Positions 38,229-41,974 of a stretch of DNA of 64,000 nucleotides are shown piece after piece (positions within the stretch are counted from its first letter, which is position 1; each line of letters opens with the position of its first letter). Location: the NCBI RefSeq assembly GCF_039655865.1, contig NZ_JBBYXL010000006.1:186001-250000 (forward strand), given 5' to 3'. The translations under genes and the position numbers were made by a program. The notes under the pieces are model-generated. The model was given only the letters and a program-made list of their open reading frames with translations. It did not search any database and had not been told where the DNA came from. The stretch is from Prosthecobacter sp. SYSU 5D2 (lineage in GTDB: Bacteria > Verrucomicrobiota > Verrucomicrobiia > Verrucomicrobiales > Verrucomicrobiaceae).

Positions 38229-39347
38229 ATGGCTGCCATGCCGAAGTCAGCACTCATCTCCACCCCCACCCTCACCGGTGTTATCCAGCCGGTCCGCATC
38301 GGATTTATTCCGCTGGCGGACTGCGCCCCGCTGCTGGTGGCACGGGAGAAGGAGCTGTTTCGCAAACAAGGAGTCAGGGTCGAACTCAGTTGTGAGGTCG
38401 GGTGGGCCACCATCCGGGAAAAGCTGCTCTATGGCCAGGTGGACGCCGCACACGCCATCGCCGGGCTGGCGCTTGCGATGCGTCTGGGACTGAGCACTCC
38501 CCCGTCAAGGATGGTGGCCCCATTCGTCTTCAATCTGCACGGCGATGCCATCACCCTCAGCCGCGATCTTTGGAACCGTGGTGTGCGTGATGCATTCACC
38601 TTGAAGAAGCTGATCCGCAGCACCACCTCTCGCCGCCTCACCTTTGGCATGGTCTCTCGCTATGCCTCTCATCACTTCCTGCTCCGTCGCTGGCTGGCAA
38701 CAGGCGGCATCAATCCTGACCAGGACGTCCGCATCGTGGCCCTGCCTCCCACCCAGATGGCCGCCAACATGGCCGCCGGGCTCATTGACGGCTATTGCGT
38801 CGGCGAACCATGGAACTCCGTCGCCGTTGAAAAAGGCATCGGCTGGGTCGCAGCCACCAGCGAAGACCTCGCTCCCAATCATCCAGAGAAAGTACTGCTG
38901 ATGAACGAGACCTTCATTGAGCAGCACCTGGACCAGGCGCAGGCCATCACCGCCGCCCTACAGGAAGCCTGCAAGTTCTGCGACGAAATGGACAACCGTC
39001 CGGAGGTGGCCCGCATCCTGGCCGACAGCGGCTTCTTCAGCAATGGCGAAGCAATCATGCGCAAATCCCTCGTCGGCCCCTTTGACCTGGGCACCGGCAA
39101 GTCGGCGGATGCCGCCAGCTTCCACATTTTTCACCGCCGCGAAGCCAACATTCCCACCAGCGAACGTGGCCGCTGGCTGCTGGAGGAGTTCATCACCCAC
39201 GGCCTCCTCCTGCCATCCCAGCGCGCCGAAGCCTCGGAGGCCATGCGTGCCTGCTGGACCTCCGATTCCCTCCTTTTTACCGCCCCTCAAACCATCTCCC
39301 CAAAACCACGCAAATCCAGCAAACGCGCCACCCCCGTCCAAGCATGA
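38229..39347 (+). CDS. NrtA/NasS-like protein without export signal
   Basis: A 372-residue member of the CmpA/NrtA nitrate-binding family: VRIGFIPLADCAPLLVARE, GWATIREKLLYGQVDAAHA, PPTQMAANMAAGLIDGYCVGEPWNSVA. It shares this layout with the downstream NrtA but has no signal peptide or Tat motif, so it should be cytoplasmic. In Azotobacter and Paracoccus a cytoplasmic NrtA-like protein, NasS, senses nitrate or nitrite and controls an antiterminator, NasT. No NasT-type gene is next to it here. Alternatively it may stand in for the NrtA-like C-terminal domain that cyanobacterial NrtC carries and that the NrtC here lacks. The stop overlaps the nrtA ATG (ATGA), showing tight coupling. Confidence 0.8.
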   Translation: MAAMPKSALISTPTLTGVIQPVRIGFIPLADCAPLLVAREKELFRKQGVRVELSCEVGWATIREKLLYGQVDAAHAIAGLALAMRLGLSTPPSRMVAPFVFNLHGDAITLSRDLWNRGVRDAFTLKKLIRSTTSRRLTFGMVSRYASHHFLLRRWLATGGINPDQDVRIVALPPTQMAANMAAGLIDGYCVGEPWNSVAVEKGIGWVAATSEDLAPNHPEKVLLMNETFIEQHLDQAQAITAALQEACKFCDEMDNRPEVARILADSGFFSNGEAIMRKSLVGPFDLGTGKSADAASFHIFHRREANIPTSERGRWLLEEFITHGLLLPSQRAEASEAMRACWTSDSLLFTAPQTISPKPRKSSKRATPVQA

Positions 39348-40630
39348 AATCCCACACCTCCACCATCTCACGCCGCAGCCTTCTTCAACGTTCCACCGCT
39401 GCCGGTCTCGGCACACTTCTCTCCGGCCTGCCCCAGGGCTGGGTCGGCAGTGCCTACGCCGATGATTCTCCGGAACGGTCCGACCTCAACTTTGGCATGA
39501 TCGCCCTGACCGATTGTTCCAGCATCGTAATCGCTCATGAGAAGGGTCTATTTAACAAGTATGGCATCAAGTCCACCGTCACCAAAGGTGCCAGCTGGGC
39601 TGCCATTCGCGACTCCCTGAGCAACAACGACCTCCAGGCCACGCACATGCTCATCGGCATGCCCATCGCCAGCACCATGGGCCTGGGAGGCGCTCCGAAA
39701 AAACCGATGGTCATCCCTTGGCTGATCAACCGCAATGGTCAGGCCATTACACTGAAAAAGGAACTCAAAGGCAAAGTAGCCGATGATCCTAAAGCGCTGA
39801 AGCCCTTTGTGGACGAAGCCAAAGCTGCCGGCAGACCGATGACCTTCGCCATGACCTTCCCGCCCGGCACGCATGCCATGTGGATGCGTTATTACCTGGC
39901 CGCTGGCGGCATCCATCCAGGAGATGCCAATGGAGCCGATGCCGATATCTCCCTCATCACCATCCCGCCTCCACAGATGGTGGCCAACATGAAGGTGGGC
40001 CAGATGGACGGCTTCTGCGTGGGCGAGCCCTGGAACGCCCGCTCCATCACAGACGACATCGGTTTCACCTCCATCACCACCCAGGCCATGTGGAAGGATC
40101 ACCCTGAAAAAGTCTGCGCCTTTACCGAGGAGTTTGCCGATAAAAACCCGAAGACCGTCAAGGCCGTGCTCAAGGCCCTGCATGAGTCCAGCATCTGGCT
40201 GGACAAAATGGAAAACCGCGAAGAGCAGGCCAACATCGTCAGCGCACCAACTTACATCAACTGCCCCCCCGAGACCATCCTCGGCCGTCTGCAGGGCAAG
40301 TATGACATGGGCGACGGACGCCGCTTCCGCGACCCGGATTACATGATCTTCAGTGATCGCAACTGCAACTACCCGCAGGCCAAATACTGCCAGTGGTGGC
40401 TCACGCAGCTCCGTCGCTGGGGCTTTACCGAAGGCGCACCTGACTACGAAGCAGTGACCAAAAAAGTCATGCGTGCTGACATCTACGAAGAGGCCATGAA
40501 GGAGATCGGCTACGCCCACGGCGGTGCTGATGACAAGCCCGAATCCCTCTTCGACGGCAGCGTCTTCGACCCCAAAGGCGACATGGAAGCCTACGCCGCC
40601 AGCTTCGCCATCAAAAGCCTCAAAGCCTGA
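39344..40630 (+). CDS. nrtA: Nitrate-binding protein NrtA, Tat-exported
   Basis: A 428-residue periplasmic binding protein for nitrate/nitrite. The Tat signal SRRSLLQ lies at 9-15, followed by an Ala/Gly/Leu stretch and SAYA before the mature protein. Core blocks: NFGMIALTDCSSIVIAHEKG, GASWAAIRDSLSNNDLQATH, PPPQMVANMKVGQMDGFCVGEPWNARSI, and a C-terminal WWLTQLRRWGF segment. The length is close to cyanobacterial NrtA, which is however a lipoprotein. A 434-bp cassette separates its stop from nrtB. Confidence 0.92.
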   Translation: MKSHTSTISRRSLLQRSTAAGLGTLLSGLPQGWVGSAYADDSPERSDLNFGMIALTDCSSIVIAHEKGLFNKYGIKSTVTKGASWAAIRDSLSNNDLQATHMLIGMPIASTMGLGGAPKKPMVIPWLINRNGQAITLKKELKGKVADDPKALKPFVDEAKAAGRPMTFAMTFPPGTHAMWMRYYLAAGGIHPGDANGADADISLITIPPPQMVANMKVGQMDGFCVGEPWNARSITDDIGFTSITTQAMWKDHPEKVCAFTEEFADKNPKTVKAVLKALHESSIWLDKMENREEQANIVSAPTYINCPPETILGRLQGKYDMGDGRRFRDPDYMIFSDRNCNYPQAKYCQWWLTQLRRWGFTEGAPDYEAVTKKVMRADIYEEAMKEIGYAHGGADDKPESLFDGSVFDPKGDMEAYAASFAIKSLKA

Positions 40631-40633
40631 GTC

Positions 40634-40666
40634 ATTTATGATTGATGATTTACGATTTATGATTTG
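40634..40666 (+). repeat. Left terminal inverted repeat of the cassette
   Basis: AT-rich and built from ATTTATGATT-like units with the core TGATTTACGATTTATGA (40646-40662). It begins four bases after the nrtA stop. Its inner part contains the stop codon and the last codons of the four-helix-bundle gene. Confidence 0.75.
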
Positions 40667-41021
40667 GCCGTGCACGGCGCTTGGTCGTGCTGCGGGTGGC
40701 ATTGAAGATCTTCGTGAGTTCTTCCGCTTCTTGCTGCAAAGCTTTCAAACGCTTGCCAGGAAGCAGTTTAGCCCGCTCAGCCAGTTCTATCCAGAACCCG
40801 CTTTCGTCAGCCTCTTCAAGAACGATCGTGATCTTGTTGATGAAGTCCGCATCGGACTTTGCTCGAAGAGCCGATCTGTAGTTCGCAGCCACTGAAGTTC
40901 CGCTTCTGGCGATCTGGCCTCCCACCGTCTTGCCCGCCGTGGTCTGCGGTAACGAGTCCACCAGTTTCAAAATTCGCACCGCAAATTCCATCGTCCGATC
41001 CTTCATCTCTTGGTTCGTCAT
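40650..41021 (-). CDS. Four helix bundle protein (23S rRNA intervening-sequence family)
   Basis: A 123-residue helical protein of the IVP/S23 family: helix 1 (EFAVRILKLVDSLPQ), GGQIARSGTSVAANYRSAL (the family's most conserved block), helix 3 (DFINKITIVLEEADESGFWIELA) and helix 4 (RLKALQQEAEELTKIFNAT). The basic tail (TKRRARPNHKS) runs into the left repeat, which supplies the stop. Members were first found in 23S rRNA insertions and also occur as stand-alone chromosomal genes; related folds include Avd of diversity-generating retroelements. The molecular role is unknown. It opposes the nrt operon, and a TATGAT box at 41043-41038 in the right repeat could be its -10. Confidence 0.88.
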   Translation of the reverse strand: MTNQEMKDRTMEFAVRILKLVDSLPQTTAGKTVGGQIARSGTSVAANYRSALRAKSDADFINKITIVLEEADESGFWIELAERAKLLPGKRLKALQQEAEELTKIFNATRSTTKRRARPNHKS

Positions 41022-41034
41022 AGGACACTGATTT

Positions 41035-41067
41035 CAAATCATAAGTCATAAATCGTAAATCATAAAT
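41035..41067 (-). repeat. Right terminal inverted repeat of the cassette
   Basis: Read on the minus strand it matches the left repeat at 29 of 33 positions. It ends two bases before the nrtB ATG and 13 bases upstream of the four-helix-bundle ATG, so it occupies the leader of both divergent genes. Confidence 0.75.
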
Positions 41068-41069
41068 TC

Positions 41070-41954
41070 ATGCACTTTATAACTCGCTACAAACTCGACA
41101 CCGTGCTCCTGCCTCTGGCAGCCATCCTGGTCTGCTGCCTCCTTTGGTACAGCATTGCAGGCAAATCGGTCACCACCGTCAAGAAAGATGACTGGGGTGA
41201 CATGGTCAAAGAAACCAAACGCTTCGGCGTCTCCAAAGATCTGCCCACTCCGGCGGAGACCTGGACCGCCAGCAAGCTTTATGTCGTGGAGCCCTTCGCC
41301 AAGCGTGGCGAGCTGGATCAGGGCATCTTGAGGTTCACCTGGCTGTCGCTCAAACTGGTCGCCCAGGGTTACTTCCTGGCGCTCATCATTGGCACGCCCA
41401 TTGGGTTCTTCCTGGGTCTGTCCAAGAAGTTCACCATCGCGTTTGACCCGATCATTCAGGTCTTGCGACCCGTCTCGCCGCTGGCCTGGCTGCCATTGGG
41501 AATGATCCTCTTCAGCGGGGTACAGATCGTGGACGCAGGTGGCCGCACCACGTTCGGAGCCTCGGATGCCGCCGCGCTCTTCACCATCGCCATCTGCGCC
41601 ATGTGGCCCACGGTCATGAACACCGCCGTTGGCGTGCGTGCTGTGCCGCAGGATTATCTGAATGTGGCCAAGGTGCTGAAGCTCTCCAAAAACAAGACAC
41701 TCTGGAAGGTCCTCGTGCCATCCACCCTGCCCTACATGTTTACCGGCTTCCGGCTCAGCCTCGGCATCGCCTGGCTGGTCATCGTTGCTGTGGAAATGCT
41801 CACCGGGCGCCCCGGCATCGGCGGCTTCCTTTGGCAGCAATACAATGCCAACAGCTTCGCCCACATCATCCTCTGCATCCTCACCATCGGCGTCATCGGC
41901 TACGTGCTGGACCGCCTCATGAGCATGATCGAGGGCCGCTTCAAAACCGCTTAA
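41070..41954 (+). CDS. nrtB: Nitrate ABC transporter permease NrtB
   Basis: A 294-residue inner-membrane permease with about six transmembrane helices. The EAA loop lies near residue 190 (VRAVPQDYLNVAKVLKLSKN), and the block GMPYMFTGFRLSLGIAWL-like sequence that follows is typical of the nitrate/sulfonate/bicarbonate subfamily. Residues 40-75 form a loop before the main membrane domain. The ATG sits right against the cassette's right repeat and has no Shine-Dalgarno sequence; nrtC follows after 20 bases. Confidence 0.92.
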   Translation: MHFITRYKLDTVLLPLAAILVCCLLWYSIAGKSVTTVKKDDWGDMVKETKRFGVSKDLPTPAETWTASKLYVVEPFAKRGELDQGILRFTWLSLKLVAQGYFLALIIGTPIGFFLGLSKKFTIAFDPIIQVLRPVSPLAWLPLGMILFSGVQIVDAGGRTTFGASDAAALFTIAICAMWPTVMNTAVGVRAVPQDYLNVAKVLKLSKNKTLWKVLVPSTLPYMFTGFRLSLGIAWLVIVAVEMLTGRPGIGGFLWQQYNANSFAHIILCILTIGVIGYVLDRLMSMIEGRFKTA

Positions 41955-41974
41955 CCGGAGGAACTTCATTCGAT

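What the first reader, a model, noticed from the sequence alone, without database searches (positions are those of the whole stretch)
40634..41067. Four-helix-bundle gene in a compact inverted-repeat cassette inserted into the nrt operon
Seen: 33-base gapless inverted repeats (29/33 identical) flank a single reverse-oriented IVP-family gene, and the unit separates nrtA from nrtB, which otherwise sit in a tight operon. No transposase is inside. The 17-base core TGATTTACGATTTATGA occurs in both repeats. Known: IVP/S23-family genes were first found inside 23S rRNA insertions and occur as stand-alone chromosomal genes, with no agreed function. Inference: this is a non-autonomous mobile unit in which the helical protein, or the repeats, is recognised by a recombinase encoded elsewhere. 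A hairpin transcript of the palindromic ends is another possibility.
Basis: partly seen in the sequence, partly recalled or inferred. Interest (0 to 1): 0.78.

Follow-up and report, generated by a model that had tools for sequence, protein, structure and literature searches.

The report
Gene cassettes ended by inverted tandem repeats
A small helical-protein gene wedged between two nitrate-transport genes belongs to a widespread kind of genetic unit whose two ends are mirror-image runs of 4-5 copies of a 7-base word, and the same words, without the gene, lie scattered through the genome, which may explain several puzzling families of scattered bacterial repeats.

Summary
In detail: 33-bp inverted repeats (29/33) flank one antisense IVP (PF05635) gene between nrtA and nrtB, with no transposase. 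That is general. Flanking inverted repeats, mostly of period 7, 8 or 10, surround 110 of 121 IVP genes in related genomes and 56 of 76 in named genomes of many phyla (controls 4 of 138 and 0 of 144). They also surround 25 of 29 genes of an unrelated family, GxxExxY (PF13366), most often with period 9. RAYT genes (ordinary REPs, no period) and DUF559 genes differ. The unit word follows the protein lineage, not the host, also when near-identical genes sit at different sites. The cassette is absent from the nearest relatives; orthologues sit at nrtB-nrtC in nine others, and gene-less arm pairs sit at nrtA-nrtB in four. Single and paired arms are dispersed; the pairs seen share one polarity. All 81 confidently scored cassettes (of 129) lie between co-directional genes. 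Xanthomonas GGGAATC repeats are arms of this kind. Best reading: a REPIN-like mobile system whose pentameric IVP reads its own array. Mobility is well supported, binding is inferred, the moving enzyme is unknown.

The parts
40634..40666 (+). Left arm: about 4.6 degenerate heptamers (ATTTATG ATTGATG ATTTACG ATTTATG ATTTG), inverted with respect to the right arm; overlaps the last codons of the IVP gene
40650..41021 (-). IVP / S23-family four-helix-bundle gene, 123 aa, antisense to the nrt operon; fold close to 2rld and 2gsc, more distantly Avd 4dwl
41035..41067 (-). Right arm: inverted copy of the left arm, heptamer array of period 7
40634..41067 (.). Whole cassette (434 bp), insertion between the nrtA stop and the nrtB start; absent from the nrtA-nrtB junction of the 24 related operons examined
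39344..40630 (+). nrtA-like nitrate-binding protein gene, host operon
   Evidence: PF13379, E 6e-90
41070..41954 (+). nrtB permease gene, host operon; start codon 2 bp after the right arm
   Evidence: TIGR01183 over cut-off
41955..41974 (+). nrtB-nrtC junction: empty here, but the site of the orthologous cassette in 9 relatives and of a GxxExxY cassette in one

Best explanation
The 434-bp unit is one member of a widespread class of array-ended cassettes: a single small gene (IVP here, a GxxExxY PD-(D/E)XK protein in others) between two inverted arrays of a short tandem unit. SHOWN by comparison: the unit is a heritable module in which the array word belongs to the gene lineage. It occurs at different sites and has empty sites. 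The same arms exist without the gene, as inverted pairs with short loops (all 15 pairs examined in one polarity) or as single arrays, dispersed in the genome. The protein is under purifying selection. INFERRED: the cassette is a mobile system that works like REPIN-RAYT. The pentameric ring-shaped IVP recognises its own array, roughly one unit per subunit (IVP arms hold about 4.5 units whether the unit is 7, 8 or 10 bp). This marks the cassette, and in trans the gene-less arm pairs and single arms, for copying into gaps between co-transcribed genes. The enzyme that cuts or copies is not identified. For GxxExxY cassettes the payload itself keeps nuclease-like residues; for IVP cassettes a partner (HUH transposase, reverse transcriptase or host repair) must be supposed.
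For: Flanking inverted repeats above the 99th percentile of shuffles: 110 of 121 IVP genes, 25 of 29 GxxExxY genes, control windows 5 of 192. Named genomes: 56 of 76 against 0 of 144 controls, best lag 7 or 14 in 60 of 76 and 8 in 11. Arm similarity follows protein identity (0.92 at >=80%, 0.63 at 60-80%, 0.22 below 40%; 0.20 for unlike copies in one genome). It also holds for >=80% pairs at different sites (0.90, 32 pairs; 27 of these 32 within the nrt-type lineage). At the nrt operon, in 25 loci including this one: IVP cassette at nrtB-C in 9, GxxExxY cassette in 1, 15 empty; at nrtA-B, IVP cassette only here, gene-less arrayed hairpins in 5. Sister pair G028 filled and G029 empty, nrtB 95.0% identical. 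15 of 15 array pairs have the same polarity, 13 of them with gaps too short for the gene. GATTTAY pattern hits outside the cassette: median 13.5 in 12 carriers, 0.5 in 36 non-carriers, p 4e-4. GGGAATC pattern: 193-499 hits in 5 genomes whose IVP has GGGAATC- or GGGATTC-type arms, 0-19 in 20 others. 81 of 81 confidently scored cassettes (33 of 33 sites) between co-directional genes (background 27 of 40 gene pairs). dN/dS median 0.066. Units per arm 4.57, 4.56 and 4.35 for periods 7, 8 and 10; GxxExxY 2.76.
Against: No transposition event, target duplication or enzyme was seen; filled junctions show no clear target-site duplication. Many IVP copies are orthologous at one site (21 genomes at one junction), so movement is rare and loci are not independent; most of the different-site evidence is one lineage (27 of 32 pairs). 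The dosage result is not corrected for kinship. Eight non-carriers have 8-45 hits (G007 36, G009 45), and assuming 8 hits per cassette weakens it to p 0.07. In one search the 20 comparison genomes include 8 whose IVP did not pass the inverted-repeat threshold, and the reversed-pattern control itself gave 98 hits in one of the 20 and up to 19 in others. The second IVP of this genome has few other copies of its word. 20 of 76 named and 11 of 121 related IVP genes did not pass the threshold. Without the confidence filter 121 of 129 cassettes, not all, score as co-directional. Invariant positions do not cluster within the unit, so a simple core-plus-spacer binding code is not evident. Units per arm differ slightly between periods (p 0.006), the period-10 arms come mostly from one site, and the range of units is wide. 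Protein binding was not tested.
Confidence: 0.55

Rival explanations
1. IVP is a global regulator of RNA or DNA. The dispersed arrays are its binding sites between operon genes, the arms around its own gene are autoregulatory sites, and nothing moves except by recombination.
For: Cassettes lie in operon gaps; words co-vary with the protein; purifying selection. Papers on single heptamer families proposed regulation (PMC4679880, PMC2700814, passages). A ring-shaped pentamer suits multi-unit binding.
Against: Does not explain whole cassettes with empty sites and the same arms at new sites, inverted pairing around the gene in many phyla, or a second, nuclease-like payload with the same architecture.
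Confidence: 0.2
2. A HUH (Y1/RAYT) transposase encoded elsewhere moves the cassettes, as in REPIN systems; IVP and GxxExxY are passengers.
For: Y1_Tnp genes occur in 47 of 48 genus genomes, 10 hits in this one; architecture parallels REPIN-RAYT.
Against: RAYT genes of the same genus carry classical palindromic REPs, not arrays (21 of 29 with inverted flanks, lags flat). Array words are specific to the IVP or GxxExxY lineage, odd for mere passengers.
Confidence: 0.12
3. It is a 23S-rRNA-type intervening sequence that moved into an mRNA: the arms form an RNA stem cut by RNase III and the element lives at RNA level.
For: The same protein family and tandem heptamers at one end of the Coxiella IVS (PMC4990558, passages); cassette strand folds with arms paired, z -5.07; placed between co-directional, probably co-transcribed genes.
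Against: No rRNA at 20 loci scanned. Arm differences show no wobble bias (105 vs 124). Single arms without a partner are common (41 of 71 arrays).
Confidence: 0.1
4. Passive origin: arrays arise by slippage anywhere and the gene was shuffled between arrays by ordinary recombination.
For: Arrays vary in unit number; the same arms surround different or no loops at one junction.
Against: Inverted orientation, fixed polarity (15 of 15), lineage-specific words at unrelated sites and absence of arrays around 12 DUF559 genes are not expected from slippage.
Confidence: 0.08

Closest known systems
23S rRNA intervening sequences with an S23/IVP ORF (Coxiella, Leptospira)
   Same: Same protein family; 428-444-nt unit with terminal inverted repeats; Coxiella's has tandem GACAGAT heptamers at one end (PMC4990558, passages); ORF-less insertions occur at the same rRNA sites as ORF-bearing ones (PMC11270868, passages)
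   Different: Not in rRNA; in operon gaps, here antisense; arms are full arrays of varying words; dispersed copies; second payload family
REPIN-RAYT (REP-associated tyrosine transposase) systems
   Same: One conserved gene flanked by inverted copies of a genome-dispersed repeat, with paired and single repeats elsewhere (REPIN description recalled)
   Different: Gene is not a HUH transposase (Pfam); repeats are tandem arrays, not palindromic REPs
Dispersed heptamer arrays: GGGAATC of Xanthomonas, TAACTGA of Beggiatoaceae, GGGACCG of Geobacter
   Same: Same kind of array, often 4-5 units, inverted pairs in Xanthomonas (PMC4692102, abstract and passages; PMC4679880, passages; PMC2700814, passages); Xanthomonas IVP genes carry GGGAATC arms
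   Different: In the passages read none was tied to a gene family; the Xanthomonas paper reports generally no association with mobile elements. The tie to IVP is tested here only for GGGAATC
Avd of diversity-generating retroelements
   Same: Same fold: 4dwl TM 0.75, 8ub7 TM 0.74, with weak Foldseek E (0.02, 0.01); homology noted in PMC10053308 (passage)
   Different: No reverse transcriptase seen by eye among the window ORFs translated (36-48 kb); stand-alone gene with array arms
Foldback (FB/Galileo-type) transposons of insects (recalled)
   Same: Inverted ends built of short tandem repeats around a payload
   Different: Eukaryotic, different enzymes; resemblance recalled, not tested

Membership tests
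IVP / S23 four-helix-bundle family (PF05635, TIGR02436) | Profile match over curated cut-off | tested here: met
   62 bits vs 33.8; 86.6 vs 24
IVP / S23 four-helix-bundle family (PF05635, TIGR02436) | Four-helix fold like 2rld / 2gsc | tested here: met
   pLDDT 95; TM 0.84 and 0.81
IVP / S23 four-helix-bundle family (PF05635, TIGR02436) | Homopentameric ring | not tested
   Known for Xcc0516 (quoted in PMC4990558); assumed for this copy
23S rRNA intervening sequence | Located inside an rRNA gene | tested here: not met
   Between nrtA and nrtB; no Rfam hit at 20 related loci
23S rRNA intervening sequence | Self-complementary ends around an IVP ORF | tested here: met
23S rRNA intervening sequence | Excised from the transcript by RNase III | not testable with these tools
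   needs RNA
REPIN-RAYT system | Gene encodes a Y1 HUH transposase | tested here: not met
   Only PF05635 found
REPIN-RAYT system | Flanking repeat is dispersed in the genome, singly and as inverted pairs | tested here: met
REPIN-RAYT system | Repeat is a short palindrome (REP) | tested here: not met
   Tandem arrays of period 7; RAYT genes of the genus have palindromes instead
DGR with Avd | Adjacent reverse transcriptase and template repeat | tested here: inconclusive
   Translated ORFs at 36-48 kb show none by eye; no RT profile search was run
Insertion sequence or MITE | Transposase inside, or target-site duplication | tested here: not met
   No transposase; no duplication visible at filled vs empty sites
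Array-ended cassette (class proposed here) | One small gene between inverted tandem arrays of a short unit, word shared by its protein lineage, gene-less copies elsewhere | tested here: met

The most novel reading that the evidence does not exclude
A new class of bacterial mobile system, in many phyla. A non-catalytic pentameric ring protein (IVP, kin of Avd) reads its own 4-5-unit tandem array, one unit per subunit, and spreads the gene cassette, gene-less array hairpins and single arrays into operon gaps. A nuclease-like family (GxxExxY) runs a parallel version with about three units. The long-unexplained dispersed heptamer repeats of bacteria would be its products, and rRNA intervening sequences one habitat of it.
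Probability: 0.3. Interest if true: 0.93.

Novelty: new variant of a known kind. Interest (0 to 1): 0.82.

Why it matters
IVP/S23 proteins have been known for some three decades without an agreed function, and dispersed heptamer arrays in Xanthomonas, Beggiatoaceae and Geobacter have been reported separately as regulatory or quadruplex elements. Tying the arrays to the gene lineage supplies a candidate reader for the repeats and a candidate substrate for the protein, so both questions become testable with one binding experiment. It would also explain an IVP gene reported between two cas genes (PMC3936711, passage) as a cassette resident in an operon gap. Annotation pipelines could use the arms to mark such units.

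Tried and rejected
(1) RNA-stem selection: sought as a bias toward G-U-tolerant arm differences; none (IVP 105 vs 124, GxxExxY 29 vs 22).
(2) rRNA residence: Rfam scan of 20 loci, no hit.
(3) Core-plus-spacer structure of the unit (clustering of variable positions): not found (observed -0.116, permuted -0.158, 120 of 272 arrays above expectation).
(4) RAYT genes as a third payload: they have REPs, not arrays. DUF559 as a third payload: no tandem arrays seen at 12 loci tested of the 27 fetched; 2 of these 12 score 31-32 for an inverted repeat, and no shuffle threshold was computed there.
(5) Target-site duplication: none seen.
(6) One search folded a stretch chosen with wrong coordinates and is not used. 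The gene calls ignored strand and were replaced. The codon model was trained with one of 11 genes (nrtC) out of frame; one search repeats both with the right frame (82 of 82 and 32 sites became 81 of 81 and 33 sites; background unchanged at 27 of 40).
(7) PHROGs: no match at E up to 0.1.
(8) Not done: kinship-corrected dosage test; a family-wide repeat of the Xanthomonas test; a reverse-transcriptase profile search.
Sampling notes: IVP loci were the best hits of different genomes plus 60 more taken from the listing (40 in listing order; 20 weaker ones picked by hand); one (L136, contig end) was dropped. One GxxExxY locus (L190), one RAYT locus (L311) and 4 of 80 named loci were dropped for short or missing flanks. 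The named set is the best 80 of at least 581. Arm comparisons used loci with score 25 or more (130 of 150).

Full report
WHAT IS THERE. The window holds a nitrate-transport operon in which a 434-bp unit separates nrtA from nrtB. Its 33-bp ends are inverted repeats with 29 of 33 positions identical; chance does not give this (score 46; maximum of 5000 shuffles 30). The only gene recognised inside is an antisense IVP/S23-family gene of 123 aa (PF05635, TIGR02436). Its predicted structure (pLDDT 95) matches 2rld (TM 0.84), 2gsc = Xcc0516 (0.81) and, more distantly, Avd 4dwl (0.75; Foldseek E 0.02). There is no transposase.

THE CLUE. The same genome carries the array word at about 11 other places that look intergenic (31 pattern hits in all, 1 in the reversed control). 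One of these is a gene-less hairpin between genes that look like atpD and atpC (by eye). The genome's other IVP gene also has inverted heptamer arrays, of an unrelated word (GGGGCAA).

GENERALITY. I tested gene flanks for an inverted repeat against dinucleotide shuffles (99th percentile). IVP genes passed in 30 of 32, 25 of 30 and 55 of 59 cases; control windows in the same loci passed in 2 of 62, 1 of 60 and 1 of 16; flanks swapped between genomes passed in 62 of 320, 19 of 300 and 56 of 590. GxxExxY (PF13366) genes of the same genus passed in 25 of 29 (controls 1 of 54, swaps 57 of 290). The strongest lag was mostly 7, 8 or 10 for IVP and most often 9 for GxxExxY (14 of 29), with shuffles flat. 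In named genomes from many phyla 56 of 76 IVP genes passed, controls 0 of 144, with best lag 7 or 14 in 60 and 8 in 11. Positive and negative controls behave: RAYT genes of the genus have inverted flanks (21 of 29), but these are ordinary REP palindromes without a period, and 12 DUF559 genes show no arrays. Many loci are orthologous, so the counts are not independent events.

THE WORD BELONGS TO THE GENE. Arm similarity is 0.92 for proteins at least 80% identical, 0.63 at 60-80%, 0.26 at 40-60% and 0.22 below. It is 0.20 for unlike IVPs within one genome and 0.23 between IVP and GxxExxY arms in one genome. Pairs at least 80% identical at different genomic sites keep 0.90 (32 pairs; 27 of them in the nrt-type lineage and 5 GxxExxY pairs). 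So arms and gene travel or descend together, and the host does not set the word.

PRESENCE, ABSENCE, RELOCATION. Of 48 same-genus genomes 30 have an nrtB match. I read the 25 close ones, this genome included (L093-L117), and left five distant matches (43-45% identity) aside. At nrtB-nrtC the orthologous IVP (80-86% identical) is present antisense in 9, a GxxExxY cassette with inverted CGCAAAG-type arrays in 1 (G014), and the gap is empty in 15. At nrtA-nrtB only the window genome has the IVP cassette; 4 have a gene-less GATTTAY hairpin and 1 a hairpin of another heptamer; 9 have a spacer of 23-30 bp and 10 another spacer without arrays by eye. The two nearest operons (G001, G005; nrtB 94% and 90%) lack it at both junctions. 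G028 (filled) and G029 (empty) have nrtB 95.0% identical, and the cassette sits between stop and start; no target duplication is visible. The same IVP lineage also sits at a different locus, beside a gene that looks like an alcohol dehydrogenase, in three genomes, one of which (G035) has both.

SOLO COPIES. In the listing for five genomes (G007, G009, G011, G012, G014), 71 GATTTAY arrays form 15 close pairs, all with the same convergent polarity; 2 span the IVP gene, 13 have gaps of 11-161 bp, and 41 arrays are single. Outside the cassettes, 12 carriers of the cognate IVP have a median of 13.5 pattern hits and 36 non-carriers 0.5 (p 4e-4). Eight non-carriers have 8-45, kinship is not corrected, and a harsher subtraction gives p 0.07. 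The pattern GGGAATC x3 has 193-499 hits in five genomes (Xanthomonas x3, Luteimonas, Dokdonella) whose IVP arms are of GGGAATC or GGGATTC type, and 0-19 in 20 others: 12 whose IVP has other arm words and 8 whose IVP did not pass the inverted-repeat threshold. The reversed-pattern control was 0 in those five, but 98 in one of the 20 (G214) and up to 19 in others, presumably other array families. GGGAATC is the repeat family described by Rehm et al. (PMC4692102; abstract and passages): 84 + 102 repeats in one Xanthomonas, 70 inverted pairs, a preference for four units, and generally no association with mobile elements.

WHERE IT SITS. 81 of 81 confidently scored cassettes (of 129) lie between co-directional genes, 33 of 33 distinct sites, 30 in sense and 3 antisense; without the confidence filter 121 of 129 are co-directional, 6 convergent and 2 divergent (which corrects). 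The background in the window is 27 of 40 gene pairs (p 2e-6 for sites). Junctions seen by eye include livG-livF, pheS-pheT and cytochrome-DUF1501 pairs (names recalled from the translations).

PROTEIN AND ARM PROPERTIES. Among 11 members of the nrt-type lineage the median dN/dS is 0.066 (46 of 55 pairs usable; dS is near saturation); one copy has a stop codon (G046). IVP arms hold a median of 4.57, 4.56 and 4.35 units at periods 7, 8 and 10, while their lengths are 32, 36.5 and 43.5; GxxExxY arms hold 2.76. The unit numbers still differ slightly between periods (p 0.006), and the period-10 arms come mostly from one site. The inward strand is richer in G than C at 145 of 157 IVP loci that differ (GxxExxY 13 of 21). 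IVP is a pentameric ring in Xanthomonas (quoted in PMC4990558), so one unit per subunit is an attractive inference, not a result. GxxExxY proteins keep D, ExK and QxxxY residues in all 14 aligned, a nuclease pattern I recall from RecB/Cas4-like enzymes; the profile search of solved structures gave only Cas4 at E 0.48.

MECHANISM. Shown: a heritable array-gene module, empty sites, placement at different junctions within and outside the operon, and gene-less derivatives of one polarity. Inferred: the protein reads its own array, and a partner enzyme copies or inserts the unit. The nearest working analogue is REPIN-RAYT; the nearest kin by protein is the 23S rRNA intervening sequence, whose Coxiella example also has heptamers at one end (PMC4990558, passages). 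MacGregor (PMC4679880, passage) suggested for TAACTGA repeats that an unidentified binding protein might be the mobile element; IVP is a candidate, and one IVP in my sample (L267) has TCAGTTA-type arms.

PRIOR WORK. Searches of the open-access library listed no paper that I could see linking IVP or GxxExxY genes with flanking short tandem arrays outside rRNA. Subscription journals and preprints are not covered, so priority is not certain. I read listings, abstracts and passages, not whole papers.

Noticed in passing
L111 (G014), nrtB-nrtC junction: A GxxExxY (PF13366) cassette with inverted CGCAAAG-type arrays occupies the same junction that holds IVP cassettes in relatives, and a CTGATTC-armed hairpin sits at nrtA-nrtB.
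   Followed up: partly
L001 (G000:C8:106226-106540): The genome's second IVP gene lies between two co-directional genes (DUF1501-like downstream, by eye) with GGGGCAA heptamer arms; the word has few other copies, apart from one long array of a variant on contig C19 (11 of 18 hits).
   Followed up: partly
L309-L338: Y1_Tnp/RAYT genes are abundant in the genus (47 of 48 genomes, up to 27 copies) with classical REP palindromes; a second, separate dispersed-repeat system.
   Followed up: partly
L041, L043, L047, L049, L050, L053-L056, L059, L061, L062, L123, L128, L130, L134, L137, L144, L145, L150, L152: One IVP lineage with mostly period-10 arms groups at a single junction in 21 genomes, suggesting long residence and perhaps a useful function.
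   Followed up: no
nrtA-nrtB spacers of L094, L095, L105, L108 and others: Relatives without arrays often seem to have an ordinary stem-loop (by eye) between nrtA and nrtB, where the cassette or the gene-less hairpin sits in others; hairpins may be favoured there.
   Followed up: no
L267 (Phycisphaerae MAG): IVP arms are TCAGTTA/TCAGTTG heptamers, the complement of the TAACTGA repeats described in Beggiatoaceae.
   Followed up: no
L292, L224: Very long arms around the IVP gene (162 nt and 97-108 nt) in a Planctomycetota and a Desulfosoma MAG, showing that unit number can expand strongly.
   Followed up: no
L018, about 1411-1480: Besides the GATTTAY word, another apparent heptamer-like run (CATTCTT/CATTCGC type) lies next to an array in the window's own genome, hinting at further array families without a known gene.
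   Followed up: no
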